A stretch of DNA of 64,000 bases from Nitrospira sp. (GTDB taxonomy: Bacteria; Nitrospirota; Nitrospiria; Nitrospirales; Nitrospiraceae), in the NCBI GenBank assembly GCA_018242665.1, contig JAFEBL010000003.1:103060-167059 (forward strand), in the 5' to 3' direction. Position 1 is the stretch's first letter. Every line of letters starts with the position of its first letter. Both the position numbers and the translations under genes were made by a program. This document shows positions 34,546 to 54,504 of this stretch, in pieces. The notes under the pieces were generated by a model that did not search any database, was not told where the DNA came from, and saw only the letters and a list, made by a program, of their open reading frames with translations.

Positions 34546-39381
<4,836 letters not shown>

Positions 39382-39397
39382 AGAAGGACTACACACC

Positions 39398-42262
39398 ATG
39401 TCGGTTCATCCACTTCGTCCCAGGCCTCGACAACCGGAGCTCGCGCTGGACCCGAACATCCTGCATGTGTTGCCGGCTAACATCGCCGTGCTGGATGCGC
39501 AGGGGACGATTCTCGCGGTCAACGAAGCCTGGGAGCGGTTTGCCGCGGCCAACGGTTTCGTCGGCGACGCCTATGGCGTGGGACTCAACTACCTGCGCAT
39601 TTGCGATGCGGCAGCTCCCAATTCCGATGCCACGCAGGTGGCGCAGGGCATCCGGCATATCCTGGACGGCACCATTCGCGCCTTCTCGTATGAGTACGAA
39701 AGCTCAAGCCCCTTCTTACGTCGCTGGTTCCGCCTGATCGTGACACCGATGCAAGGCCACCGGAGTTATGGCGCCGTCGTCATGCACATCAATGTCTCGG
39801 ATTTGAAGCAGGCCGAAGCCGCCATGCACCAGAGCGAAGCGAGACTGCGTGCGATCGTTGACACGGCCGTGGACGGCATCGTGGTGATCAATAACCGGGG
39901 CACCATCGAATCCGTGAACCCGGCGGTCACCCGCATGTTCGGGTACAGCCCGGAACAATTGATTGGGCAAAACGTCAAGTTGCTCATGCCCGACCCCTAC
40001 CATACGGAACACGACCAATATCTGCGCAATTACCTGTCGTCGGGCCAGAAGAAAGTGATCGGCATCGGACGAGAGGTCTTGGGCCTTCGCAGTAACGGCG
40101 TCTCATTCCCCATCGAATTGGCCGTGAGCGAGATGCTCGTCGATGGCGCTCAAAAGTTTACCGGCATCGTCCGAGACATCTCGTCCCGCAAGCAGGCCGA
40201 AGCGCAATTCCAGCAAGTCGTGGAATCCGCGCCGAACGGCATGTTGATGATCGACCCGCAGGGCAGGATCACGCTGGTGAACAAGCAGGTCGAACAGATG
40301 TTTGGCTATATGCGAGAGGAGATGCTGGGGAAGCCGGTGGAGATGTTGATCCCCGAGCGGTTTCGCAACGACCATCCCGCTCATCGTACCGGCTATTTTT
40401 CCGCCCCGACTTCGCGGGTCATGGGGGCCGGCCGAGAGTTGTTCGGCCTGCATAAGAACGGCCACGAGTTTCCCGTCGAACTCGGACTGAATCCGATCGA
40501 TACGCCGACCGGAAAACTCGCGCTGGCCTCAATCGTCGACATCTCGTTGCGCAAACGTTCGGAGAATGCCCTCTCCAAAGCCACCCAGGATCTGGAATGG
40601 AAGAACTGGGAATTGTCCGAAGCCCGCGACCAGGCCGTGCGGGCCGGCCAGGCAAAGACCGAATTCCTAGCCACGATGAGCCACGAAATCCGCACCCCCA
40701 TGAACGGGGTGATCGGCATGACGACCCTGTTACTCGATACCGAGTTGACCGCGGAGCAACGGGGGTATTTGGATACGCTGAAACATTCCGGTGAGTCCCT
40801 GTTGCGCATCATCAACGACATCTTGGACTATTCTAAGATCGAGGCCGGCAAGTTCACCATTGAGCACATCCCCTTCGATCTCCGGCTGACCATCGAAGAC
40901 ACACTGGATATCCTGGCGCCCATCGCACAGGGACGAGAATTGGAACTGGTCGGGCTGATCGATGCCCAGACGCCGCGAACGGTGATCGGCGATCCAGGAC
41001 GGATCAGGCAAATTCTCACCAACTTGGTCGGCAACGCCATCAAGTTTACCGAGAAGGGGGAAGTGCTGATCCAAGTGCTACAAACGGACGAAGGCGACGG
41101 CTCCGTTACCCTGCGATTCGAGGTGATCGATACCGGCATCGGCCTCACCCTGGAAGCCCAGGCAAAAATGTTCCAGGCCTTTTCGCAGGCCGACAGCTCG
41201 ACGGCACGCAAATACGGCGGCACGGGGCTTGGCCTCTCCATTTGCAAACGTCTCGTCGAGCTGATGGGCGGGCAGATCGGACTCCAGTCGATGCCAGGCA
41301 TGGGAACCTGCATCTCCTTCACGGTGAAGCTCGGCACTCCGCAAGAAGGCACCGCTCCCATCGCCCCACCCTTGCCCGTGAAAAATCTCAACGGCCTACG
41401 GGTCTGCCTGGTGGACGACAACGCCACCAATCGAAGCTTGCTCCAGTACCATGTCTCAGCCTGGAACATGCACCACGAGAGCGCGGTGGATGGGCCCTCG
41501 GCGTTAGCCCTGTTGAAGAAGGCTGCTGAAGAGGGCATCCCGTTTGATCTCGCCCTCGTCGATGTCACGATGCCGGATATGAGCGGCCTGGAGCTCTGCC
41601 GTTTGATTAAGCAGGATCCCGCCATCGCGAAGACACAGGTCATCCTGCTCACGGCCTCGGGGCAACGCGGAGACAGCGCCACGGCCAAGGAAGTGGGCGC
41701 CACTGGGTACCTGACGAAACCCATTCGCGAACGTCATCTGGCGGATTGCATTCGCCTCGCCCTTGGTCGAGAGGGCCAAGGAGACGAGAAGGCGCAGCTG
41801 ATCACGCGGCATACCTTGACGGAAGCGAAGGCTCGCACCGTCCAGCGTGTGCTGGTGGTGGATGACAATCCGATCAACCAGCGCGTGGCCGTGAAAATGC
41901 TCGAGAAACTGGGATGTCGCGTGGATCTCGCGGGAAACGGCATGGAGGCCTTGGCCGCGGTGTGCCGTCATCCCTATCCCTTGGTCTTCATGGACTGTCA
42001 GATGCCGGACCTCGACGGATTCGAAACCACCCGCTTGATTCGTTCTCAAGAACAACCGGGAACGCGCCTGCCGATCATCGCCATGACGGCCAATGCCATG
42101 GCGGGCGACCGCGAAGCTTGTCTGAAGGCCGGCATGGACGATTTCATCAGCAAACCGATCATCGTCGAGGAACTGCGAGCGAAAGTGGCGCACTGGTTGC
42201 CGGACGCCACGCCGGAAGTCCGGACCGCGTCTGCCGGGGATGACGCGCTGAGAGACGCATAG
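39398..42262 (+). CDS. Hybrid histidine kinase, three PAS, two receivers
   Basis: A 954-aa soluble kinase, 16 bases after the 1611-aa kinase gene. It has three PAS domains (about 18-140, 145-270, 270-390), the second FixL-like (VDGIVVINNRGTIESVNPAV); HisKA with His429 (MSHEIRTPMNGVIGM); HATPase (about 480-640); and two receivers with intact phosphoacceptors Asp722 (DLALVDVTMPDMSG) and Asp866 (LVFMDCQMPDLDG). From HisKA onward it is clearly a paralogue of the preceding kinase, probably by tandem duplication. ATG 39398 follows AGAGAAGGA; longer frames run back into the preceding gene and are not supported. Confidence 0.92.
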   Translation: MSVHPLRPRPRQPELALDPNILHVLPANIAVLDAQGTILAVNEAWERFAAANGFVGDAYGVGLNYLRICDAAAPNSDATQVAQGIRHILDGTIRAFSYEYESSSPFLRRWFRLIVTPMQGHRSYGAVVMHINVSDLKQAEAAMHQSEARLRAIVDTAVDGIVVINNRGTIESVNPAVTRMFGYSPEQLIGQNVKLLMPDPYHTEHDQYLRNYLSSGQKKVIGIGREVLGLRSNGVSFPIELAVSEMLVDGAQKFTGIVRDISSRKQAEAQFQQVVESAPNGMLMIDPQGRITLVNKQVEQMFGYMREEMLGKPVEMLIPERFRNDHPAHRTGYFSAPTSRVMGAGRELFGLHKNGHEFPVELGLNPIDTPTGKLALASIVDISLRKRSENALSKATQDLEWKNWELSEARDQAVRAGQAKTEFLATMSHEIRTPMNGVIGMTTLLLDTELTAEQRGYLDTLKHSGESLLRIINDILDYSKIEAGKFTIEHIPFDLRLTIEDTLDILAPIAQGRELELVGLIDAQTPRTVIGDPGRIRQILTNLVGNAIKFTEKGEVLIQVLQTDEGDGSVTLRFEVIDTGIGLTLEAQAKMFQAFSQADSSTARKYGGTGLGLSICKRLVELMGGQIGLQSMPGMGTCISFTVKLGTPQEGTAPIAPPLPVKNLNGLRVCLVDDNATNRSLLQYHVSAWNMHHESAVDGPSALALLKKAAEEGIPFDLALVDVTMPDMSGLELCRLIKQDPAIAKTQVILLTASGQRGDSATAKEVGATGYLTKPIRERHLADCIRLALGREGQGDEKAQLITRHTLTEAKARTVQRVLVVDDNPINQRVAVKMLEKLGCRVDLAGNGMEALAAVCRHPYPLVFMDCQMPDLDGFETTRLIRSQEQPGTRLPIIAMTANAMAGDREACLKAGMDDFISKPIIVEELRAKVAHWLPDATPEVRTASAGDDALRDA

Positions 42263-42369: not shown

Positions 42370-42927
42370 GTGAGTCATCCGTCTCCATCCCATACCCCGT
42401 CATCCCCATCCGCTTCGGTCCATCGCGTTGAGCAGCTTTTCGAAATCCTGATCTTCGGCAGCCGTTGGATTCAGGCGCCGCTGTACGGCGGACTGATCGT
42501 CGCGGAACTCCTCTATGCCGCCAAGTTCCTCACGGAACTCTGGCACATGATCGTCCATTTCCGCGAGGAAAGCGAAACCCTCTTCATGCTTGGTGTGCTG
42601 TCACTCATCGATGTCACCATGGTGGCCAACCTCTTGACCATGGTCATCATCGGCGGGTACGCGACATTTGTCAGCAAACTGGACCTTGAAACCCATCCGG
42701 ACCGGCCGGAATGGCTCACCCATGTGGATCCCGGCACCATCAAGATCAAGCTGGCGGCCTCGCTGGTCGGTATTTCCAGTATCCACCTCCTCAAGGCCTT
42801 TGTGGACGTGACCAACGAAAACCCCGAACACATCAAGTGGAAAATTTTTATTCACATGACCTTCCTGGGTTCGGCGATCTTCCTGGCCTACACTGACAAA
42901 CTGATGCAACGAGACCGGAAACACTGA
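42370..42927 (+). CDS. YqhA-family (TIGR00645) inner membrane protein
   Basis: A 185-aa membrane protein with about four helices (around residues 30-55, 75-100, 130-148 and 160-175). The motifs LFEILIFGSRWIQAPLYGGL and ATFVSKLDLETHPDRPEWL are typical of the YqhA/UPF0114 family, whose function is unknown. The start is GTG at 42370 after AAGGAGG. It follows the second hybrid kinase by 107 bases on the same strand, but a functional link is only a guess. Confidence 0.82.
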   Translation: MSHPSPSHTPSSPSASVHRVEQLFEILIFGSRWIQAPLYGGLIVAELLYAAKFLTELWHMIVHFREESETLFMLGVLSLIDVTMVANLLTMVIIGGYATFVSKLDLETHPDRPEWLTHVDPGTIKIKLAASLVGISSIHLLKAFVDVTNENPEHIKWKIFIHMTFLGSAIFLAYTDKLMQRDRKH

Positions 42928-43236
42928 CACCTTCCCGAGACCGTGGTGGACGGCCCATTGTGGGGATGCACGGTCTACGGTGCGCGGTCACGGCGTATCA
43001 TTTGAGATACGCGCTGTATCAATTCTGATAAGCGCCGCCCATGTTACCCTACGCATTCACTCGTAGCCCCTCGCCAATCCGCTCACTACAGGCGCCCGCT
43101 CGATACGATGCCAACGGCGACTCGCCTTGCTCTCCAAGGCATGTGCCTTGCCTGGTCTACTTGCAGGATTGCTCACGTCGTCTCGCTATCGCCCACGCGA
43201 CGGCTTGACGAGAATACTGATTCGCGAGGAGTGCCC
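42928..43236. other. Intergenic region with alternative hairpins upstream of the patatin gene
   Basis: This 309-base gap holds two adjoining hairpins: GCGTATC-ATTTGA-GATACGC (42993-43012) and GCGCT-G-TATCA-ATTC-TGATA-AGCGC (43011-43035). They share two bases, and GGCGTATCA (42992-43000) can pair instead with TGATA-AG-CGCC (43026-43036), so the structures exclude one another. No T-run follows. In the remainder I see only the ribosome site (GCGAGGAG, 43224-43231) of the gene at 43237. An in-frame ATG at 43108 could lengthen that gene but has no ribosome site. Confidence 0.45.
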
Positions 43237-46200
43237 ATGAACACACCTGTCGCTCCACCTGCCCCCCCCCTCTCGCTCGGCGAGATTCTGATGGAGGAAA
43301 TCGAACTGTTGGACGGCCCCTTCCCTGACCACCACCCCATCAAAGCAGCGCTGGCAAAAAAAAGACAGGAACCGGATCCGGTCAAACAAGTGGAGCTGGA
43401 CAAGGAGGTGCTCGTCGCACTTCGCCGGCACATCCATGGCAACCATCCGAAACGGGCGGGTCTTTGCCTTTCCGGCGGTGGGATACGGAGCGCAACCTTC
43501 GGGCTGGGAGTCTTACAATCGCTGGCCAAGCTGCAACTGCTAGACAAATTTGACTATCTGTCCACCGTCTCAGGCGGCGGCTATATCGGCAGTTGGCTCA
43601 CGGCCTGGATGCACCGGCACCCCGAAGGCGTGAACGGAGTGATGGATGATTTGAGCAACCAGCCGAAAAACGGCGCAACGGAAGCCCCCCCGGCGGTCCG
43701 CTGGCTCAGAAACTACAGTAACTACCTCACACCGCACCTAGGATTCTTCTCCGCAGATTCATGGACCCTTCTGGGCATCTACCTGCGAAACCTCACTCTC
43801 AATTGGATGGTGCTGCTGCCGCTACTGATCTTCCCGCTCCTTGTGCCACGCTTGATGATCGCCCTCACCCAACTCACTCCCCGGACTGCCGGCCTGCCAG
43901 ATTGGGCCACATCTGGGCTACTGATCGTTGGGCTGGGTCTCGCGGTCATGGCCTTGATTTATCTCCATCTTTGCCGCCCTGCGTTACGTGAGTTTCGACG
44001 AGACCCGTGGCAGATCAAACTCGAAACGCAATCCTGGTTTCTCCGCGCCTGCCTGGCTCCCTTGATCCTCTCGGTCGGCTGCCTCACCATCGCTTGGGCC
44101 TGGTACCGCAATGGCGATGGCACGCTGGAGCACTTCACCACTCAACAGGCCATCGTCGGCGGGGCAGTGATTCACACAGGCAGTTGGCTCTTTTCGGCAG
44201 TCGTGCTCAAACGATTCAAGGCCCTGACACGGTGGTTGGTCCTGGAAACATTGGCGGTGGCCGGCACCGGCGCGATCGGCGGATTCTTTCTGCACGCGGC
44301 CCTGGCCAAACTGCCGGATGATCTGAACGAAGCACAATTTGCAGAATGGTTTGCTTTCCTCGCCCTGCCTGCCGTCTTCTTGATCTTTCTCCTGACCGCT
44401 ACGCTTTTCATCGGTGTCGCCAGCCGGCTCACCGAAGAGCAGGATCGTGAATGGTGGGGTCGCACGGGGTCCTGGATGCTGATCGTTATGATCACCTGGA
44501 TGGGACTCTCCGGAATTGTGATTTTCGGCCCTGGTCTACTCCATTGGATGACGCCACAAGTTGCCGCCTCCGTCGGCGGACTGTCCGGCTTGCTGACACT
44601 GATTTTGGGATTCAGTTCGCGAACCACGGCTCAGCAACAGGAGGAACGGTCGACCCTTACCGTGTTCACCGATCTGGCAGTTCGCGCCGCCGCGCCGTTG
44701 TTCATGGTCTGCGTTCTGATCGCGCTGGCCCTTGGCACCAGCTGGCAGTTGGACCTGCTCGCGCACCAGTATGATCAGCATCTATCCGACCGCGCGCACC
44801 CCCGGATAACAGGCCTTGGCATCTGGACTGATCCGTGGGGGCACGATCAGACCCTGCACAATACGCCGTTGTGGCTGCTGTCGCGCTTTAGCGTGACCGT
44901 CTTCGTGATCGGGTTCCTCATGTCCGTTGTCATCAACATCAACCGGTTCTCGCTGCATGCGATGTATCGGAATCGTCTGATTCGTGCCTATCTCGGGGCA
45001 TCACGCAATCAAAAGGACCGCGAGCAAAGCTTCAACCCATTCACCGGCTTCGACAATCTCGACAACCCATCCATGAGCGACATGCGCTTCGACGAGGTGC
45101 GTCTCGCCCGCTGGTTCCATGAGCGAGAGACATCCGAGCATTCCGTCGTGCCGACATTGGCCGCCTATCTGCGCCTGACGGATCCGACGCCGGAACAAGA
45201 GGCGTCACTGCGCGCCCAACTGCTGCAAGATTTGAAGCAGCCTCCGGTTCAAACGCGCCTGAACGAAGCCGCCCAACAACTTCGTCCCGGTCCGGACTGC
45301 CGGGCCAGATTGACCGCCTTGCAGGTGCCGGACACCGCTGCCGGTCAGAAAGCCGCCAAATGGTTGGCCGATCTCTTCGTGAAACGATTCCATCAACGGA
45401 GCCCCAGGCTGCTGCATGTGATCAACATCGCCCTCAACCTGGTCAAGGGCGACAACCTGGCGTGGCAACAACGTAAGGCGCAATCGTTCACGATCAGTCC
45501 GCTGCACAGCGGAAGTTGGAACCTCGGCTATCGGCGATCCGAAGAGTACGGGGCCAACCACTATATCAATCAACCCCTGTCGCTCGGCACGGCCTTGGCC
45601 ATCTCAGGAGCGGCCGCCAGTCCCAACATGGGGTACCATTCCTCCTCCGCGGTGACGTTTCTGTTGGCCCTTTTCAACATTCGTCTCGGCTGGTGGCTGG
45701 GCAACCCTGGAAAGGCAGGCGCGACGACCTACCGAAAGGCCTCGCCGAACTGGTCGATTCGCCCGCTGCTGGCCGAAGCGTTCGGGCTTACCGACTCCTG
45801 CCATCCCTACGTCTATCTGTCTGACGGCGGGCACTTCGAGAATCTGGGTCTGTACGAAATGGTCTGCCGCCGCTGCCATTGTATTCTCGTCGTCGATGCC
45901 GGCTGCGACCCGCGACTCGCCTTTGAAGATTTCGGCAACGCCATCCGCAAGATCCGCATCGATCTGGGAATCGATATCGAGATCAACCTCGACCAGATCG
46001 CCCGATCGGCCGAGTCTGGAAGCAGCACCCGTCACCATGCCATCGGGATGATCCGGTACGACAAGGTCGATGACAATGCCACCGCCGGCACACTGGTCTA
46101 TCTCAAGCCATCGCTGACCGGCAGCGAGCCTACCGACGTGCTGGATTATGCCGCCCGCCATCCGGGCTTTCCCCATGAACCGACCTCCGATCAGTTTTTC

Positions 46201-47256
46201 GACGAAGCTCAATTCGAATCCTATCGCCGCCTCGGAGAACACATCGCCCAACTCGTGCTGCGCCCAGCGCTTGAGCGCCGCATACAGGAATTTTCCAACC
46301 TCTGCCATGCCTTGCGCTCCTACTGGATGACCATCCCGCCGGGGATGCAGGAGTCTTTCCTGGGCGAAACGGATGACCTGAAAGACCTCGAACGATTGCT
46401 ACGAGACGACCCAGATCTCCTTCGCTATGATCTAGAGATCTATCCGGAACTCTGTTCGGTGTTCGGCATCGACCCAGGGAGCGTAGCGCCGAATCCCCGT
46501 GCCGCATTACACACCTGCAACCTGCAGATTCAGCTCATGGAACAGGTGTATTTGGCGGTGAAGTTGGAGGATTACCACGGCCATGCGCTCAACCGCGGCT
46601 GGATGAATCTCTTCCGGCGATGGACCTGTTCAGCCACGTTCCGCCTGTTCTGGCCCACCGTCTGCAGCATGTACAGTCAGCAGTTTGTGCGATTTGCCGA
46701 GCAGCATTTTAATCTCTCGATCGAACAGGCCGCACTTCTGGAGCCGCTGGGGACGGCCAGTGATTTGACGCCGCTGTTTCGTGATCTGTCCATCGACTGG
46801 TCCTCCGCACCGGACTATGCCCACACCTTCATGCACGTGCTCGCGCACCCCCTCCCGCTGGAGGAAGTCACGGACAAGCCGCCGAAACTCGCCGCCTGGC
46901 AACTCCGCCTTCCAGCGCTCGACTCGCAGACCGGACCGGTCGGTCAGGGGGAGATCCTGGCCGTAGTCGCGGCCACGCGTCTTTCCGTCCCGGAACACCG
47001 CCTTGGATTGTACGGATGGGTTCGCCCGGCCTATCGTGGACTGAGACACGGACACCGCCTGTTCGGAAAGGCCATCGAGGAACTGATCGCGGCGTACCCC
47101 AACCACAACCTGATCGTCGACTTAGGCCCAATCGATCCGGCCTGGGCCGGCACATCGATCCGCAATGTCGGCTGGCTTCGGTTTTACGAACAATTGGGCT
47201 TTACGCGGGATCGTTCAAATCCAGACCGGTTCCAGATGACTCGGGTGTTGAAATGA
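43237..47256 (+). CDS. Patatin-like phospholipase with membrane insertion and C-terminal GNAT domain
   Basis: A 1339-aa protein. Patatin features are the oxyanion motif SGGGIRS (residues 79-85), the nucleophile Ser112 in STVSGGGYIG and the catalytic Asp863 in YLSDGGHFENLG. Between serine and aspartate lie about 750 residues, including roughly ten membrane helices (about 185-580) and a helical soluble part, so the catalytic domain is split by a membrane insertion. The last 120 residues (about 1221-1339) are a GNAT acetyltransferase domain (LYGWVRPAYRGLRHGHRLFG, then VGWLRFYEQLGF). A lipid-acting enzyme at the membrane is likely; the acetyl-transfer partner is unknown. ATG 43237 follows GCGAGGAG. 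Confidence 0.85.
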   Translation: MNTPVAPPAPPLSLGEILMEEIELLDGPFPDHHPIKAALAKKRQEPDPVKQVELDKEVLVALRRHIHGNHPKRAGLCLSGGGIRSATFGLGVLQSLAKLQLLDKFDYLSTVSGGGYIGSWLTAWMHRHPEGVNGVMDDLSNQPKNGATEAPPAVRWLRNYSNYLTPHLGFFSADSWTLLGIYLRNLTLNWMVLLPLLIFPLLVPRLMIALTQLTPRTAGLPDWATSGLLIVGLGLAVMALIYLHLCRPALREFRRDPWQIKLETQSWFLRACLAPLILSVGCLTIAWAWYRNGDGTLEHFTTQQAIVGGAVIHTGSWLFSAVVLKRFKALTRWLVLETLAVAGTGAIGGFFLHAALAKLPDDLNEAQFAEWFAFLALPAVFLIFLLTATLFIGVASRLTEEQDREWWGRTGSWMLIVMITWMGLSGIVIFGPGLLHWMTPQVAASVGGLSGLLTLILGFSSRTTAQQQEERSTLTVFTDLAVRAAAPLFMVCVLIALALGTSWQLDLLAHQYDQHLSDRAHPRITGLGIWTDPWGHDQTLHNTPLWLLSRFSVTVFVIGFLMSVVININRFSLHAMYRNRLIRAYLGASRNQKDREQSFNPFTGFDNLDNPSMSDMRFDEVRLARWFHERETSEHSVVPTLAAYLRLTDPTPEQEASLRAQLLQDLKQPPVQTRLNEAAQQLRPGPDCRARLTALQVPDTAAGQKAAKWLADLFVKRFHQRSPRLLHVINIALNLVKGDNLAWQQRKAQSFTISPLHSGSWNLGYRRSEEYGANHYINQPLSLGTALAISGAAASPNMGYHSSSAVTFLLALFNIRLGWWLGNPGKAGATTYRKASPNWSIRPLLAEAFGLTDSCHPYVYLSDGGHFENLGLYEMVCRRCHCILVVDAGCDPRLAFEDFGNAIRKIRIDLGIDIEINLDQIARSAESGSSTRHHAIGMIRYDKVDDNATAGTLVYLKPSLTGSEPTDVLDYAARHPGFPHEPTSDQFFDEAQFESYRRLGEHIAQLVLRPALERRIQEFSNLCHALRSYWMTIPPGMQESFLGETDDLKDLERLLRDDPDLLRYDLEIYPELCSVFGIDPGSVAPNPRAALHTCNLQIQLMEQVYLAVKLEDYHGHALNRGWMNLFRRWTCSATFRLFWPTVCSMYSQQFVRFAEQHFNLSIEQAALLEPLGTASDLTPLFRDLSIDWSSAPDYAHTFMHVLAHPLPLEEVTDKPPKLAAWQLRLPALDSQTGPVGQGEILAVVAATRLSVPEHRLGLYGWVRPAYRGLRHGHRLFGKAIEELIAAYPNHNLIVDLGPIDPAWAGTSIRNVGWLRFYEQLGFTRDRSNPDRFQMTRVLK

Positions 47257-47330: not shown

Positions 47331-47741
47331 TTATGAAGCGGTGGGGGAACTCGAATCACACACGGCATGAGACCGCACCGGCCCGATAAGGGCCCGAACT
47401 CCAAGCAACAGGCGATCTACGCTGAAGGGTTTCTCCAAGGTACCATGCGCGCCGAAGATTGCGGCAATTTTGAGAATATCGTAGCCCTGCACCGCCTGCC
47501 CCGAGATGGCCAGGACCTTCACAGGCACATGCTGGCTGTGCAGCCGGCGGATCGTTTCAAGACTATCCTGCACGGGCACATACACGTCAAGGATCACAAC
47601 TTCGGGAGAGTCACGCTCTCTGGTTTGTAGCGCCTGCCGGCCATCCGCAGCTTCGATGACACGGTATCCTTCCATTTCGAGCACGGTCCGCAGCCAACGA
47701 CAAATCTTCTCGTCATCGTCAGCAACCAGAATCAGCGCCAC
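47331..47741 (-). CDS. Single-domain response regulator (receiver only)
   Basis: A 136-aa receiver with no output domain. The acidic residues (LILVADDDEK), the phosphoacceptor Asp (VVILDVYVP, about residue 51), the Ser switch (VLAISGQ) and the Lys (GTLEKPFS) are all present, so it should accept phosphate. It lies 18 bases downstream of the LuxR regulator gene at 47760 and ends the operon led by the giant kinase, so it may be a phosphate sink or relay for that kinase. Confidence 0.88.
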   Translation of the reverse strand: MALILVADDDEKICRWLRTVLEMEGYRVIEAADGRQALQTRERDSPEVVILDVYVPVQDSLETIRRLHSQHVPVKVLAISGQAVQGYDILKIAAIFGAHGTLEKPFSVDRLLLGVRALIGPVRSHAVCDSSSPTAS

Positions 47742-47759
47742 CAGCCCCTCACCTCGGCG

Positions 47760-48440
47760 TCAGGCACAATCTTCCGCAGAAAATCCCCCGCTCGGCAATG
47801 TCCTCGCATAAAGGGTCGCCACCTGCGATCGTCGCGAAATCCCCAACTTGGAATACATATTGGAAATATAGTTTTTCACCGTTTTGTCTGAGAGCGACAG
47901 GGCCAGAGCGATCTCCTTGTTCGTCTTGCCTTCCGCCACGAGCGGCAACAGGCGCCGCTCCTGCGGCGACAGTTCGGCCATGCAGGCCGTCGACAAACCA
48001 TTGGCCATGTCCCGCACTTCCATCAAGACCTCGCCGATCAGTTGCGGCCCCATGAGCTGATGGCCCTCGACGACCCGTCGGATCGCGTGGCGCCACATCG
48101 CTACCGGCGTATCTTTCAATACGTACCCTTCCGCGCCCGCCGCGATCGCCTCCCGGATGACGACGGGATCGTCGTACACGCTGAGGATGAGCACCTTCGT
48201 ACCCGGCCTCTCGACCACCAACCGACGACAGGCACGGACCCCGGACCCGTCCGGCAAACTGATATCCAACAACACCACGTCCGGCACCAGCCTCTCGACC
48301 AATTCCAGGCCTTCCGCTGTCGAGGTGGCCTCGCCGACGATACGGAACTCCCCCGTTCGATTGAGCTGCTCCCTGAGCCCCAGGCGGGCCATGCGGCTAT
48401 CGTCAATCAAAACAACGCGATATACATGCTGCCCATCCAT
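47760..48440 (-). CDS. NarL/FixJ-type response regulator
   Basis: A 226-aa regulator with an intact receiver (VLIDDSRMARLG, phosphoacceptor in VVLLDISLPDGSG, Lys in GYVLKDT) and a C-terminal LuxR helix-turn-helix (LSPQERRLLPLVAEGKTNKE and LSDKTVKNYISNMYSKLG). ATG 48440, after AGGGAGAGGG, gives the normal family start; the frame upstream is not conserved. The output domain closely matches the degenerate-receiver regulator at 33786, so the two may bind similar sites. Confidence 0.92.
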   Translation of the reverse strand: MDGQHVYRVVLIDDSRMARLGLREQLNRTGEFRIVGEATSTAEGLELVERLVPDVVLLDISLPDGSGVRACRRLVVERPGTKVLILSVYDDPVVIREAIAAGAEGYVLKDTPVAMWRHAIRRVVEGHQLMGPQLIGEVLMEVRDMANGLSTACMAELSPQERRLLPLVAEGKTNKEIALALSLSDKTVKNYISNMYSKLGISRRSQVATLYARTLPSGGFSAEDCA

Positions 48441-48600
48441 CGCCCTCTCCCTGATCCTCAACCATGCGGCGTGTTTCGCCGCATGTAGTCTCGGCGGAGC
48501 GGGCACGTAGGAATATCGGCAGAAGATGGATTTGACTGTCGGCATTCGGCTGACAGTGCAGCGACGTACGGATGAACCAGGACGGAGTACGGGAAGACCC

Positions 48601-49239
48601 TTAGTCGATGAGCCGCGCTTCAATCGCGTAGCGGATCAACTCACCGGTGCTCCCGCATGACAGTTTTTCCAGAATCCTGGCCCGATAGGTACTGATGGTT
48701 TTCACGCTGAGCCGAAGTTCCTCGGCGATCAAGGATACCGATTTGCCCTGCCCCAGCAAACGAAGCACTTGCAGTTCGCGGTCCGACAATCTGGCGTGCA
48801 AGGATTCGTCCGCACCGGTTTCCAGGGCGCTTGCCATCTGTTCCGCCAGCGCCGCAGTAATGTACCGCCCGCCCTGCAAGACCCGCATGACGGCCGCTAG
48901 CAATTCGGAGGGGGCACTTTGCTTGGTCAAATATCCCGACGCGCCGGCTTTGATCGCCCGCATCGCAAATTCCTTTTCCGGATACAAACTCAACATGAGC
49001 ACCGGCAGGCGAGGTTGCAACAGTTTGGCCTCTTTCAACACCTCCAACCCATGCTTATCCGGGAGAGCGATATCGAGCACCATCACATCCCACGGCTGGC
49101 GACGAACGGCGGCCAACGCCTCTTCGCCGTTCCTGGCCTCGAAGATCTCTGAGCACAGTTGCTCCTCTTCCAACAATTCACGCACTCCCCGTCGGACAAT
49201 CGGATGATCATCCGCGAGCAGACATCGCCATTTATTCAT
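48601..49239 (-). CDS. NarL/FixJ-type response regulator overlapping the giant kinase gene
   Basis: A 212-aa regulator with an intact receiver (LLADDHPIVRRG, VMVLDIALPDKHG, Lys in GYLTKQS) and a LuxR helix-turn-helix (LSDRELQVLRLLGQGKSVSL and LRLSVKTISTYRARILEKL). The start ATG 49239 is preceded by GGAGG and overlaps the end of the kinase gene by eight bases. The two are therefore translationally coupled, and this is the best candidate for the cognate partner of that HisKA_3 kinase. Confidence 0.93.
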   Translation of the reverse strand: MNKWRCLLADDHPIVRRGVRELLEEEQLCSEIFEARNGEEALAAVRRQPWDVMVLDIALPDKHGLEVLKEAKLLQPRLPVLMLSLYPEKEFAMRAIKAGASGYLTKQSAPSELLAAVMRVLQGGRYITAALAEQMASALETGADESLHARLSDRELQVLRLLGQGKSVSLIAEELRLSVKTISTYRARILEKLSCGSTGELIRYAIEARLID

Positions 49240-52200
49240 GAACCGATTTCCTCCGTCGTGATGCCGAACCCGATGGCGTGCCTTCTCGAGTCGTGGTGTC
49301 CGGCGAAGATCCGACAGGGAGACGAACTTGCACCGTGGTGCCGGAACCGGCGCCGGAGCTGATTTCCACCTGACCAGCCAAAATCTCCACCCGTTCGCGT
49401 ATACCCCGCAGTCCGAATCCGCCCATCGGTGAGAGTCGCCCCACATCAAATCCCACGCCATCGTCATGAACGGTCAACTGCCATTCCTGCCGGCTTCGCT
49501 GCACCACAATCGAGACAGTCGTGGCATGCGCATGGCGGATCACATTCGTCAGCAGTTCTTGGACAATTCGATAAAATGCCGTCTCCAGCGTGGGGAGACG
49601 TGCTCCGCGACGCACCTTCTGTTCGAACACCAGGGAACAACGCAACCCGGTACGAGCTTGGACATCGGCAATCAGCGCCTCCAGGCTTGCCTTTAACCCA
49701 AGCTCTTCCAACACCGGCGGACGAAGGGCTCTGACGATCTGACGCAGACGGGCAAACAGCAGATCGATCGTGTCCAGCGCGCGCGCCAGCCGTTCCTGGC
49801 CGGATTCGCCGGCCACCCGGGATCGGGCGGCGTACCGTTTCACCGAGGCGAGATCAAACTTGAGCGAGGTCAACAATTGTCCGAACTCGTCGTGCAATTC
49901 GCGGGACAATCGACGCCGTTCGTTCGATTCCACCATGTGCAGTTCCTGCGACATGGCCTGAAATCGGTGGTAGGCCTCTTCCAGCGACGCATAGGCCCGG
50001 CGCGGCGCCGTCACATCGATCATCGCCCCAATCATGCGCACGCCCACCCCGGAGTCGTTTCGCACGATATGCGCGCGGTCCAGGAAATACCCATAGGTGC
50101 CGTCGGCCAGCTGAAAGCGGTATTCCGCCGAGAACGTCCTGACATCGGTCTGAATGGCCCGGCTCACAATATCCAGCACCCGCTCCCTGTCTTCGGGATG
50201 CAATCGGCTGCTCCACGCATCCACACTCGGTTCCTTCCCGGAATCGTATCCGAACTTGTCGCAGGCGTTCGGGCTCCACCAATGATCACCCGTCAGCAAA
50301 TCCCAATCCCACAAAATATCGTTGGTGGCCAAGGCCACAAAACGGAACCGCTCCTCGCTGGATCGGAGCAAGGCTTCTGTCTGCTTGCGTTCAGTGATGT
50401 CCCGCCCCACTCCGCTGATGCCCACCACCCGCCCGTGCAAGTCCGCGAAGGTCGCGCCATTCCAGTGATAAGGAAGGGTCCGGCCGTCTTTCGTCAAGAG
50501 ATGCCCTTCCAATTCTGCATACCCCTGTTCAAACGCTTGCCGGATCGCCGCCGTGGTCGGCTCAGCCTCGGCTGTCGGCACCATCTCAAGGGCCGATTTG
50601 CCCAACAACTCGTCACAGGTATACCCCGTGACGGTTTCCAGCCGGCGATTCCATTTGCTCAAACGCCCCTCCAGATCCAACACAAAGATCACGTCGGGGA
50701 CCGTCTCCATGATGGTCTGGAGATTGGCCAAGGCTTCCGTCCGTTCACGCTCCACCCGATTGCGCTCCGTGATATCGGTGATGGTCCCGACCATGCGTAG
50801 AGGCTGTCCCTGCGCATCCCTGGCGACGACCTTACCGCGATCGAGATACCATCGATATTCGCCGGACTTGTGGCGTAACCGCAGCTCAAGTTCCTTCACG
50901 GGCGTATGGCCGTCTAGATGCGCTTGCATCACCTCGGCCAGGCGGGAGTGGTCGTCGGGATGCAGAATTCTAAAGAAAAATGCCGTTGATCCGGTGACGT
51001 CCTCCGGCGGATAACCGAGAAGCCTGATCCACTGCGGGCTGTAATAGACGGCGTCGGTTTCGATATTCCAGTCCCACAGCCCCTCGTTGGTTGCCTCAAT
51101 GGCAAAGTGGAACCGTTCTTGGCTGGCGAGCAAGGCGCCCTCGGATCGTTTCCGTTCCGTCACATCACGGACGAATGCGCAATGGCATTCGCTTCCGTTG
51201 TAGTACATAAAATTCACATCCACTTCGATCGGAATGAGCCGGCCGTCCTTGGCCCGGTGCGTGCCTTCGAAGGATACCCGCTCCTTTTCCCTCGTCTCCT
51301 GCCAGTAACTCGGCCAGTGCTCCCGGGTAAACAAGGGGTTGAGATCATGCACGGTCATCCCGAGAAACTCTTCCCGCGAATACCCCAACATCAAGGACGC
51401 CGCCTCGTTGACATCCAGCAATTCTGCCCCCGATCCGACCCAGTAAATCGCCTCCGTGGCGTGATCGACCGTATACTTGGCCAGTTGCAACGCCTCTTCC
51501 GTCCGTTTGCGTTCAGTAATGTCCTGCACCATCGCTAACACGTGGAGCGCGCGACCCGCCTCGTCCCGGATCACCGACAGCCCCACATGGGCCCAGATGA
51601 TGCGTCCGTCTTTTCGGATATACCGCTTTTCGAACACGTCGCAGGCCAATTCCCCCGACCACAGGCTCCGGACACGTTCGAGGTTTTGCCCCAGATCCTC
51701 CGGATGTGTCACCGACTGATAGGTGCGCGTAAGCAGTTCCTCTTCGGAATATCCGAGAATTGTGCACAGCGTCTGATTAACTTCTCGGAGGCGGCCCGTG
51801 TCGTCCGCGATCGACATCCCAACCGTCGCATTGCGATAGGCGGCGCGAAACCGTTCTTCGCTTCGGCGAAGCGCATCCTCCACCCGTTTTCGTTCCGTGA
51901 CGTCGAGCAGGACGCCGATGGTCCGGCCCACGTGTCCTTGCGGGCCTGAAAGGCCGCGTCCCCTCGCCATGACCCAGCGTTCTTCCCCCGAGGGAAGACG
52001 CAGCCGGTACTCGGCCTCGAAGTCGTGCTGCGTTCTCATGCAGTCCTCGAATCGCTGCGCCACCCATTGACGGTCTTCCGGATGAATCCGCTCCAAACAG
52101 GCCGCATACGAGGTGACATCACCGGGACGGAAGCCGAAAATCTCAAGTCCTCGCGCGCAAAAATGGGTGCGGTTCGCGCTCTGATTCCAGTCAAAGGTGC

Positions 52201-54358
52201 CTTCGCCCGCCGCCTCCAACGCAAGACTGAGGTGCAGGTCGCCTTCCTGGCGCTCCGCCTCCGCCTGTTTCAGTTCCGTGATGTCCTTCACATGGGCTAC
52301 GCGCGAATGAGGCCGCCCCTTCGCATCTCTGATGAGCATGGCTTCGACCAGCACCGGAAAGATCGATCCATCCTTGCGTTGCTGGGTCGACTCGAACATC
52401 AGGTGCCCGGTCTGGTCGATCTGCAGACAACGCTCCTGGACGGCGGCGCGTTCTTCCGGAGGGTATACCGACAGCACGGGGCGGCCGATCAACTCGTCCA
52501 CGGCATATCCGCATTGCCGGGCAAACGCCCGATTGACCGCTGTGAAGGTCTCTGACGTCAGATCCGCATGGGCAAGGCCGAACTCGGCCTGGTCAAATAC
52601 CTGTTGCCAGCGGCGCGCATCCTCTTCGGCTTCCTTTCGCTCGGTGATATCCGTCATCGCCCCAACCATCCGGTAGGGACGGCCCTGCTCATCCCACAAG
52701 GCTTGCGCGCGCGATTGCATCCATCGATAGCGTCCGTCCTTGTGCCGCAATCGGCATTGCACATCAAAAGGCTCGCGCTGCGCAAAATGCCTCTGCGTCT
52801 CCGCCTGGACCCGCGCCACATCATCCGGATGCAACCGATCAAGGAATGCGGAGACATGATTGGGCAATTCATCCTCACCAAACCCCAACAACGCTTTCCA
52901 CCGAGTGGAATGCACCACCTCGCCGGTGAGCACATTCCAATCCCAGATGCCGTCGGAGGTGCCTCGAAGGGCCAGGGCATAGCGTTCTTCGCTCTCCTTG
53001 AGTTGCACCTCCGCGAGATATCGTCCCAACTCACTGCCGGCGCGACCGGCTGCCAGGCGCAGCAGTGACTCTGCCCACGCGGCATCCTCCAACGGCTTTG
53101 TGGAGAGCAGCGCGATCCAACCAACGGGTTCGCCTGTGGGCGACGGCAGCGTGAGCGCCATGTAGGACTCGATGGCAAATTGTCGAAGCAGGGCGTCCTG
53201 GGGGAAAGCGGTTTGCACGGCGTGCGGATAGTGACAGAACTCTTCGCTCAAGACATGCTCGCAGGGCGTCTTCGCCAAATCGTATTCCATGGGCGGTAGT
53301 CGTCCCTCCGGCCCGTACCCGACGACGGACTGAGCACGCTGCCGTCCCTGCAGCGGTCGCATACAAAATCCATACGTCGCCCCGAGCGAACGAGTCAGCG
53401 TTTCGACGAGCTCCTGCAGGAACGTCACCCCCGTTGCGCGGGAGGCGCCGCCCATGACGTGCAGCGCCTCCTCATTGCGCTTCTCCGCCATGCGATTGCG
53501 CACTGAAACAATTGTGCCCCTGAGATCCCCGCCCCGAACGAAGGGCGCCGCGATCCAGCTCACCAGGACTCCCGACCCATCGTGTGAGACAAACACGTCC
53601 TCTGGACACTGCACCACAGATTGCGCAGCACAGGCGTTCACGAGCCGGCATCGTTCCTCTGGGGAAGGCGTCGCCGTCTGTTCATGACGATGCACGCACT
53701 CGTCTAGCAATCGGCCGAGCAGGGCAGACGAAGGCTGGTGGAGGAGCGTCTCCGCTCCACGATTGATGCGCAGCACTCGCCCACTAGGATCCGTCACGAA
53801 GACCGCGTCTGCCATACTGGCGAGCATTTCTTCCATAGCGGAATCCTCGCTGGCCGAGCGGTCATGGGTCGTGCGTCGCAGTTCCAACTGGGCGGTGGCC
53901 TGCCGGGCCAGTCGGCGCAGGGCCTGGCATTGCTCGTCGGTCGGCCGGCGCGGCGCCGTATCCATGACGGCAATCGTTCCCACGGCAAACCCGTCCGGAG
54001 TTATAATCGGCGCACCACAGTAAAACCTCACGCCGGGATCCGACGCGACCAGGGGATGGGACGAGAACCGCGGATCGGCTTGCGCATCCTCAATCGCCAC
54101 CAGCTCCCCCTGTTGAACCGTGTACGTACAGAGACCGGATGAGCGGGGCGTCTGGGTCGTGGGGAGACCGACCGTGGCTTTGAACCACTGTCGGTCCTGG
54201 TCGATGAACGTGAGGACAGCGATGGGCACACCATACAGTGCTGCAGCCACATGCACGAGGTCATCGAAGGCGCCGTCTGGGGAAGAGTCGAAGACCCGGT
54301 AGCGCGTCAAGGCTGCTACGCGGGCAATTTCGTCGGAGGGCGGGGCGTGCGTCGCCAT
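49232..54358 (-). CDS. Giant sensor histidine kinase, two GAF and about nine PAS domains, HisKA_3
   Basis: A 1708-aa soluble kinase. It starts with a GAF domain (about 5-165), then one PAS (about 170-290), a second GAF-like region (about 300-450), and eight further PAS domains in series (about 455-1465), several of PAS_3 type with PAC ends (RMVGAMTDITERK and variants). The output is NarX-like: a HisKA_3 dimerisation segment with ERRRLSRELHDEFGQ and an HATPase ending in DDGVGFDVGRLSPMGGFGLRG. The chosen start is ATG 54358; a TTG at 54382 is possible. No membrane helices are evident, so it should sense internal redox, gas or small-molecule signals. Confidence 0.92.
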   Translation of the reverse strand: MATHAPPSDEIARVAALTRYRVFDSSPDGAFDDLVHVAAALYGVPIAVLTFIDQDRQWFKATVGLPTTQTPRSSGLCTYTVQQGELVAIEDAQADPRFSSHPLVASDPGVRFYCGAPIITPDGFAVGTIAVMDTAPRRPTDEQCQALRRLARQATAQLELRRTTHDRSASEDSAMEEMLASMADAVFVTDPSGRVLRINRGAETLLHQPSSALLGRLLDECVHRHEQTATPSPEERCRLVNACAAQSVVQCPEDVFVSHDGSGVLVSWIAAPFVRGGDLRGTIVSVRNRMAEKRNEEALHVMGGASRATGVTFLQELVETLTRSLGATYGFCMRPLQGRQRAQSVVGYGPEGRLPPMEYDLAKTPCEHVLSEEFCHYPHAVQTAFPQDALLRQFAIESYMALTLPSPTGEPVGWIALLSTKPLEDAAWAESLLRLAAGRAGSELGRYLAEVQLKESEERYALALRGTSDGIWDWNVLTGEVVHSTRWKALLGFGEDELPNHVSAFLDRLHPDDVARVQAETQRHFAQREPFDVQCRLRHKDGRYRWMQSRAQALWDEQGRPYRMVGAMTDITERKEAEEDARRWQQVFDQAEFGLAHADLTSETFTAVNRAFARQCGYAVDELIGRPVLSVYPPEERAAVQERCLQIDQTGHLMFESTQQRKDGSIFPVLVEAMLIRDAKGRPHSRVAHVKDITELKQAEAERQEGDLHLSLALEAAGEGTFDWNQSANRTHFCARGLEIFGFRPGDVTSYAACLERIHPEDRQWVAQRFEDCMRTQHDFEAEYRLRLPSGEERWVMARGRGLSGPQGHVGRTIGVLLDVTERKRVEDALRRSEERFRAAYRNATVGMSIADDTGRLREVNQTLCTILGYSEEELLTRTYQSVTHPEDLGQNLERVRSLWSGELACDVFEKRYIRKDGRIIWAHVGLSVIRDEAGRALHVLAMVQDITERKRTEEALQLAKYTVDHATEAIYWVGSGAELLDVNEAASLMLGYSREEFLGMTVHDLNPLFTREHWPSYWQETREKERVSFEGTHRAKDGRLIPIEVDVNFMYYNGSECHCAFVRDVTERKRSEGALLASQERFHFAIEATNEGLWDWNIETDAVYYSPQWIRLLGYPPEDVTGSTAFFFRILHPDDHSRLAEVMQAHLDGHTPVKELELRLRHKSGEYRWYLDRGKVVARDAQGQPLRMVGTITDITERNRVERERTEALANLQTIMETVPDVIFVLDLEGRLSKWNRRLETVTGYTCDELLGKSALEMVPTAEAEPTTAAIRQAFEQGYAELEGHLLTKDGRTLPYHWNGATFADLHGRVVGISGVGRDITERKQTEALLRSSEERFRFVALATNDILWDWDLLTGDHWWSPNACDKFGYDSGKEPSVDAWSSRLHPEDRERVLDIVSRAIQTDVRTFSAEYRFQLADGTYGYFLDRAHIVRNDSGVGVRMIGAMIDVTAPRRAYASLEEAYHRFQAMSQELHMVESNERRRLSRELHDEFGQLLTSLKFDLASVKRYAARSRVAGESGQERLARALDTIDLLFARLRQIVRALRPPVLEELGLKASLEALIADVQARTGLRCSLVFEQKVRRGARLPTLETAFYRIVQELLTNVIRHAHATTVSIVVQRSRQEWQLTVHDDGVGFDVGRLSPMGGFGLRGIRERVEILAGQVEISSGAGSGTTVQVRLPVGSSPDTTTREGTPSGSASRRRKSVHE

Positions 54359-54504
54359 ACGTGCAGTCCCACGCGCGAACAATGGAAGGCATCCTCTATC
54401 TCAATTTCGCCCTGACTCTTATCACAAATGTCCGGCATGGACTAGAGCCATTCGGAGTGGGCGTGATGTGCGTCGTCGGCCACAGTCCGGTCGAGGCAGG
54501 AGAG

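What the first reader, a model, noticed from the sequence alone, without database searches (positions are those of the whole stretch)
43237..47256. Patatin domain split by a ten-helix membrane insertion and fused to a GNAT
Ser112 and Asp863 of the catalytic dyad are separated by about 750 residues with many membrane helices, and a complete GNAT domain follows at the C terminus. Lipase and acyl/acetyl transferase in one membrane protein suggests lipid remodelling, for example release of an acyl chain and acetylation of the product or head group.
Basis: partly seen in the sequence, partly recalled or inferred. Interest (0 to 1): 0.62.

Follow-up and report, generated by a model that had tools for sequence, protein, structure and literature searches.

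The report
Membrane-split patatin lipase with C-terminal GNAT
A nitrite-oxidising bacterium (Nitrospira) makes one large membrane protein whose two lipase halves are predicted to fold together around ten membrane helices, and which ends in an unnamed helical domain and an acetyltransferase-like domain; relatives show it is real and conserved, but what it acts on is unknown.

Summary
Window 43237-47256 encodes one 1339-residue protein; Ser112 and Asp863 are invariant, 751 residues apart, with ten membrane helices between them. An AlphaFold model joins both patatin halves into one fold (human cPLA2-alpha Z 24.5; PlpD Z 18.9, 234 of 255 residues). Loop charges put both halves and the GNAT in the cytosol. 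The C terminus has a GNAT fold (Z 12.9) and was never found apart from the patatin in the phylum.

Added here: (1) membrane-split patatins are an existing, widespread kind; (2) between patatin and GNAT lies an unnamed ~150-residue helical domain X, in no Pfam or NCBIfam family, strongly constrained, found after membrane-split patatins in seven phyla and sometimes as a separate downstream gene; (3) complete GNATs were found only in Nitrospira relatives and one Verrucomicrobium; (4) a ~100-residue module before the second patatin half is hypervariable, and two lineages carry it exchanged as a cassette; (5) this window's copy alone has Arg for the first Gly of the acetyl-CoA motif.

Most likely an inner-leaflet lipid acyl hydrolase controlled by X and the GNAT. 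Coupled lipid acetylation is possible but nothing points to it.

The parts
43237..47256 (+). Whole gene, 1339 residues (P0001)
   Evidence: Open frame, start with GAGGAG at 43226-43231, conserved across the genus
43438..43746 (+). First patatin half, residues 68-170 (oxyanion SGGGIRS at 79-85)
   Evidence: PF01734 positions 1-49 at 76-126, E 1.1e-8; model aligned to cPLA2 and PlpD from residue 68-71 on
43570..43572 (+). Predicted nucleophile Ser112
   Evidence: Invariant in 17 orthologues and in the 39-row family alignment
43753..44931 (+). Ten-helix membrane block, residues about 173-565
   Evidence: Hydropathy, AF2 helices, K/R 21 in cytosolic against 5 in periplasmic loops
45085..45405 (+). 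Hypervariable helical module, residues 617-723, exchanged as a cassette in two lineages
45406..46260 (+). Second patatin half, residues 724-1008
   Evidence: Most conserved segment within the genus; model aligned to one patatin domain together with the first half
45823..45825 (+). Predicted catalytic Asp863 (DGG)
   Evidence: Invariant
46267..46716 (+). Domain X, residues 1011-1160, all-helical, with NRGWMNLFRRW
   Evidence: Found after membrane-split patatins in seven phyla; separate frame downstream in L110, L123, L131; no Pfam, NCBIfam or PDB sequence match
46723..47253 (+). GNAT domain, residues 1163-1339
   Evidence: VIA-align Z 12.9 to 1wwz, 12.8 to Naa10; weak Pfam matches
47035..47052 (+). 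GNAT motif A, residues 1267-1272, RGLRHG here against RGLGLG or alike in all other full-length relatives; Arg1270 at 47044-47046
42370..42927 (+). UPF0114-family membrane protein gene, 309 nt upstream; a homologue was found nearby in 12 of 16 compared loci; probably a neighbour, not part of the system
   Evidence: PF03350 E 6.7e-36; synteny

Best explanation
It is a membrane-embedded patatin/cPLA2-type serine-aspartate lipid acyl hydrolase (or transacylase). The chain starts in the cytosol, forms half of the patatin domain, crosses the inner membrane ten times, returns to the cytosol and completes the same patatin domain, so that Ser112 and Asp863 form one active site held against the inner leaflet. 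Domain X is a partner of the catalytic domain (clamp, lid or regulator). In Nitrospira the GNAT attached to X makes the lipase answer to acetyl-CoA, by binding it or by acetylating the protein itself or a partner. The variable module at 617-723 is a specificity or partner-binding surface. Shown by computation: one gene, conserved dyad, halves meeting in a model, topology from charges, GNAT fold, purifying selection, module exchange. Inferred: hydrolase activity, substrate, and the roles of X, GNAT and module.
For: Dyad and oxyanion motif invariant. Model of 40-1190 (pLDDT 81.6, pTM 0.74) aligned across the membrane block to cPLA2-alpha (Z 24.5, 380 residues) and PlpD (Z 18.9, 234 of 255), first non-patatin 5.7. 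Even number of helices and positive-inside loops. X as constrained as the catalytic core (dN/dS 0.00-0.08), tied to membrane-split patatins across phyla and present as a separate adjacent frame in three loci. GNAT fold, conserved motif A in all relatives but this copy. Relatives without X and GNAT exist, so the C terminus is an add-on to a self-standing lipase. The wider fold family includes transacylases (PMC7603386).
Against: No activity, substrate or ligand is known. The Ser-Asp distance could not be measured because coordinates were not readable. The nucleophile motif is T-V-S-G-G, not strict G-x-S-x-G. The window copy has Arg1270 in the acetyl-CoA motif, which may weaken or abolish binding. 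Nothing directly links the GNAT to control of the lipase.
Confidence: 0.5

Rival explanations
1. One reading: a two-step lipid remodelling enzyme. The patatin releases an acyl chain and the GNAT acetylates the lyso-product or an amine head group.
For: Both domains are in one chain and on the same, cytosolic side by charge; the GNAT is complete and under purifying selection in the genus.
Against: Best GNAT structural matches are tied and include protein and small-molecule acetyltransferases, so they name no substrate. Close relatives work without the GNAT. Arg1270 in this copy.
Confidence: 0.13
2. A conflict or recognition effector: a membrane-damaging phospholipase held inactive until the exchangeable module senses a partner or an invader.
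For: Patatin effectors CapV and CapE are among the structural matches. The module is hypervariable and exchanged as a cassette. X-bearing proteins are scattered and rare outside Nitrospira.
Against: No PADLOC match, no conserved defence-like neighbour seen, no matches in phages, and near-universal presence in the genus, which is unusual for defence genes.
Confidence: 0.15
3. Two independent enzymes joined only for membrane anchoring: the GNAT acetylates cytosolic proteins or small molecules and has nothing to do with the lipase.
For: The GNAT has its own conserved sites and complete GNATs are limited to part of the family.
Against: X lies between the two, is tied to patatins and is more constrained than the GNAT; the C-terminal 329 residues were never found apart from the patatin in 295 genomes of the phylum.
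Confidence: 0.12

Closest known systems
Patatin-like phospholipases (Pfam PF01734; structures PlpD, CapV, CapE, VipD, patatin)
   Same: GGGxR oxyanion motif, Ser and Asp dyad, one alpha/beta/alpha fold in the model (Z 17-19)
   Different: Catalytic domain split by ten membrane helices; X and GNAT added; Pfam reads only the first 50 positions
Cytosolic phospholipase A2 (human cPLA2-alpha, -delta)
   Same: Best structural match (Z 24.5, 380 residues) and the only lipase with a sequence-profile match in the PDB (cPLA2-delta, E 0.0065)
   Different: C2 domain not seen; sequence identity 13-19%; PF01735 matched weakly in 3 of 39 relatives; no claim of membership
Membrane-split bacterial patatins annotated 'patatin-like phospholipase family protein', e.g. 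WP_111069335.1 of Azospirillum and ~880-aa Nitrospiraceae forms
   Same: Same split patatin around a multi-helix membrane block
   Different: No X and no GNAT in the Nitrospiraceae short forms; function not found described
GNAT acetyltransferases
   Same: Fold over 1163-1339, motif A in relatives, conserved Tyr1317
   Different: Below Pfam's cut-off; G1270R in this copy; fused to a membrane lipase through X

Membership tests
Patatin-like phospholipase (PF01734) | Glycine-rich oxyanion motif G-G-G-x-R | tested here: met
   S79-G-G-G-I-R-S85 invariant
Patatin-like phospholipase (PF01734) | Ser nucleophile in G-x-S-x-G | tested here: inconclusive
   Ser112 invariant, but the motif is T-V-S-G-G; first position is Thr here and through the genus
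Patatin-like phospholipase (PF01734) | Asp in D-G-G/A | tested here: met
   D863-G-G invariant
Patatin-like phospholipase (PF01734) | Both halves in one patatin fold | tested here: met
   In the model: PlpD Z 18.9, 234 of 255 residues, spanning model 32-985; a prediction, not a structure
Patatin-like phospholipase (PF01734) | Lipid acyl hydrolase activity | not testable with these tools
   Needs an assay
cPLA2 (PF01735) | Family profile match | tested here: not met
   Not matched by the window protein; 3 of 39 relatives weakly
GNAT acetyltransferase | GNAT fold | tested here: met
   Z 12.9, 143 residues, to 1wwz; hundreds of GNATs near; model pLDDT 79.7
GNAT acetyltransferase | Motif A R/Q-x-x-G-x-G/A | tested here: not met
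   Met in all other full-length relatives, but this copy reads R-G-L-R-H-G
GNAT acetyltransferase | Pfam gathering cut-off | tested here: not met
   19.4 to 21.6 bits against 27 for PF13508
Anti-phage patatin effector (CapV/CapE, CBASS) | Profile match in a defence library and a cyclase gene alongside | tested here: not met
   PADLOC no match; no cyclase-like neighbour seen, though not every neighbour was put to a family search

The most novel reading that the evidence does not exclude
A membrane-embedded, cPLA2-like bacterial lipase whose activity is set by a previously unnamed helical domain carrying a GNAT as acetyl-CoA-dependent switch, and whose cytosolic recognition module is diversified between lineages by cassette exchange.
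Probability: 0.12. Interest if true: 0.8.

Novelty: new variant of a known kind. Interest (0 to 1): 0.5.

Why it matters
It would tie membrane lipid hydrolysis to acetyl-CoA status in nitrite-oxidising bacteria. It also points to a domain (X) and an exchangeable module that none of the family libraries used here holds. Membrane-split patatins are common in bacteria, but no functional study of one turned up in the searches made here. A ~300-bp cassette exchange inside a lipase gene is a concrete pointer to the part of the protein that is free, or driven, to change.

Tried and rejected
GNAT as a separate gene: rejected; one frame throughout, with only L096/G304 frameshifted there. Chance ORF: rejected. 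GNAT homology of the tails after X in other phyla: they carry FRVQDHLRRMGLGR, which resembles GNAT motif A, but 5 of 26 reach Pfam GNAT only weakly (best E 5.8e-4), hhalign against the Nitrospira GNAT aligns the right motif without significance (E 0.08, probability 0.7%), shuffled controls score as well and a PDB profile search finds no GNAT; left open. Silent donor copies of the exchanged module: none in seven genomes; only weak matches around E 0.03-0.09 besides the gene itself. General decay of the window's GNAT: not seen, 3 changes at 76 otherwise invariant sites. Plasmids: no match to the X-GNAT part, membrane-split patatins only. Phages: no match. Viral structure library: uninformative. 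Papers: nothing found on Nitrospira patatins or a patatin-GNAT fusion.

Full report
WHAT IS THERE. Window 43237-47256 (+) is a single gene of 1339 codons with ATG at 43237 and GAGGAG 5 nt before it. The closest named matches are Nitrospira defluvii and Nitrospira MAGs. Pfam sees the first ~50 positions of Patatin at 76-126 (E 1.1e-8) and a GNAT below its cut-off at 1239-1323.

CONSERVATION. 15 of 16 other genomes of the genus in the first sample carry the whole protein at about 70-80% identity. In the genus-wide search 25 of 29 genomes match its C-terminal 329 residues; one of these is frameshifted within the GNAT and one is a contig fragment matched only in X. NG86 dN/dS over ten pairs: first patatin half 0.04-0.16, membrane block 0.11-0.20, second patatin half 0.002-0.09, X 0.00-0.08, GNAT 0.06-0.20, module 617-723 0.17-0.64. 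X and GNAT are thus maintained, and X is about as constrained as the catalytic core.

DO THE HALVES MEET? The AF2 model of residues 40-1190 has mean pLDDT 81.6 and pTM 0.74. VIA-align places both sides of the membrane block on one solved domain: human cPLA2-alpha 1cjy_B Z 24.5, rmsd 3.9, 380 residues, model 29-989; PlpD Z 18.9, 234 of 255 residues, model 32-985; CapE 18.5, VipD 17.9, CapV 17.8, patatin 17.3; the first non-patatin scores 5.7. Foldseek alone put cPLA2 first, at E 1.5e-3. The coordinates could not be read, so the Ser-Asp distance itself is untested.

TOPOLOGY. With helices from 173-212 to 545-565, cytosolic loops hold 21 K/R and periplasmic loops 5. Ten crossings bring the chain back to the starting side, as a shared active site needs. 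The patatin, X and GNAT would then be cytosolic, where acetyl-CoA is.

C TERMINUS. The model of residues 1003-1339 (pLDDT 79.7) shows a helical X to about residue 1158, then a GNAT: Z 12.9 to 1wwz, 12.8 to Naa10, many tied. These matches do not tell the substrate. In this window motif A reads RGLRHG; every other full-length relative found has a Gly at 1270. The difference is substitutions in two adjacent codons, without an indel. The domain shows no general decay in this copy.

DOMAIN X. A scan of 84,980 species genomes with the C terminus gave 55 loci. In nearly all of them X follows a membrane-split patatin in the same frame; phyla are Nitrospirota, Acidobacteriota, Pseudomonadota, Gemmatimonadota, Verrucomicrobiota, Myxococcota and Thermodesulfobacteriota. 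In L110, L123 and L131 X is a separate frame directly downstream of a ~900-aa membrane-split patatin, which suggests an independent partner domain. No Pfam, NCBIfam or PDB sequence match. It is rare outside Nitrospira: 1 of 199 genomes in the phylum of L106 (an Acidobacterium) and 2 of 398 in the phylum of L107 (a Thiodictyon), each count including the reference genome. After X, other phyla have a tail with a GNAT-like motif but no significant GNAT homology.

HISTORY. In a tree of the second patatin half the complete-GNAT proteins are Nitrospira relatives plus one Verrucomicrobium; the ~880-aa forms without X and GNAT are nested among them, so loss of the C terminus is the simpler reading. Those short forms, and the GNAT-bearing L047 and L097, have a second patatin gene directly upstream, overlapping or within about 65 nt; it begins with a lipobox-like signal, and the L047 copy matches Patatin over 49-314 (E 1e-16). 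In the window's genome a similar small patatin lies on another contig (L071).

EXCHANGED MODULE. Residues 617-723 occur in the genus and in one further genome of the family (G955, E 1.3e-13), and are missing from L047 and the ~880-aa forms. The window's module is 35-62% identical to the others while its membrane block is 67-78%. L043 matches L038 at 86-100% DNA identity along the gene, except codons about 604-703, where it falls to 47-68% and instead matches L045 at 90-97%; L045 is 58-92% elsewhere. L044 shows the same towards L039: 42% protein identity to its flank neighbour L037 in the module, 66% to L039. Besides the gene itself only weak matches exist in the genomes, so no silent donor copy is seen. 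This is recombination confined to a module in two of the 16 sequences compared. Its meaning is open: a specificity surface, or a site tolerant of change between conserved arms. Assembly switching is not excluded without reads.

MECHANISM. The best reading is an inner-leaflet lipid acyl hydrolase or transacylase, with X as partner domain and the GNAT as acetyl-CoA-linked control. The fold family does more than hydrolysis: cPLA2-epsilon is an N-acyltransferase and PNPLA1 a transacylase (PMC7603386).

NOVELTY. The split patatin is an existing annotated kind. X, the X-GNAT addition and the exchanged module appear in none of the libraries used here. I rate it a new variant of a known kind.

Noticed in passing
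window 45085-45405; L043:8764-9087, L045:8491-8814, L044:9076-9393, L039:8605-8922: A ~100-residue module inside the gene is hypervariable and in two lineages looks replaced by a cassette from another lineage, with same-lineage DNA on both sides.
   Followed up: partly
window 47044-47046: Arg1270 replaces the first Gly of the GNAT motif A only in this genome; substitutions without an indel.
   Followed up: partly
L047:5494-6954 and the genes upstream of the patatin in L048-L057 and L097: A second, lipoprotein-like patatin gene (about 472-595 aa as called) lies directly upstream of the membrane-split patatin in other Nitrospiraceae; not adjacent in the window's genus.
   Followed up: partly
L110:7702-8496, L123:7914-8492, L131:7836-8687: Domain X as a separate frame directly downstream of a membrane-split patatin gene.
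   Followed up: partly
L099-L130, residues after X: Tails with FRVQDHLRRMGLGR, resembling GNAT motif A, without significant GNAT homology.
   Followed up: partly
L096; G304:C36:242385-243334: Frameshift between X and GNAT in one Nitrospira genome; real or assembly error not decided.
   Followed up: no
L098 and L109, upstream genes: By eye, an alpha/beta-hydrolase-like gene (L098) and a subtilisin-like protease gene (L109) lie upstream of X-bearing patatins; single cases.
   Followed up: no
window 34546-42262 and 47331-54382: By eye, large multi-PAS sensor kinase genes and response regulator genes flank the patatin gene on both sides; relatives of several of them flank it in most genomes of the genus compared.
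   Followed up: no
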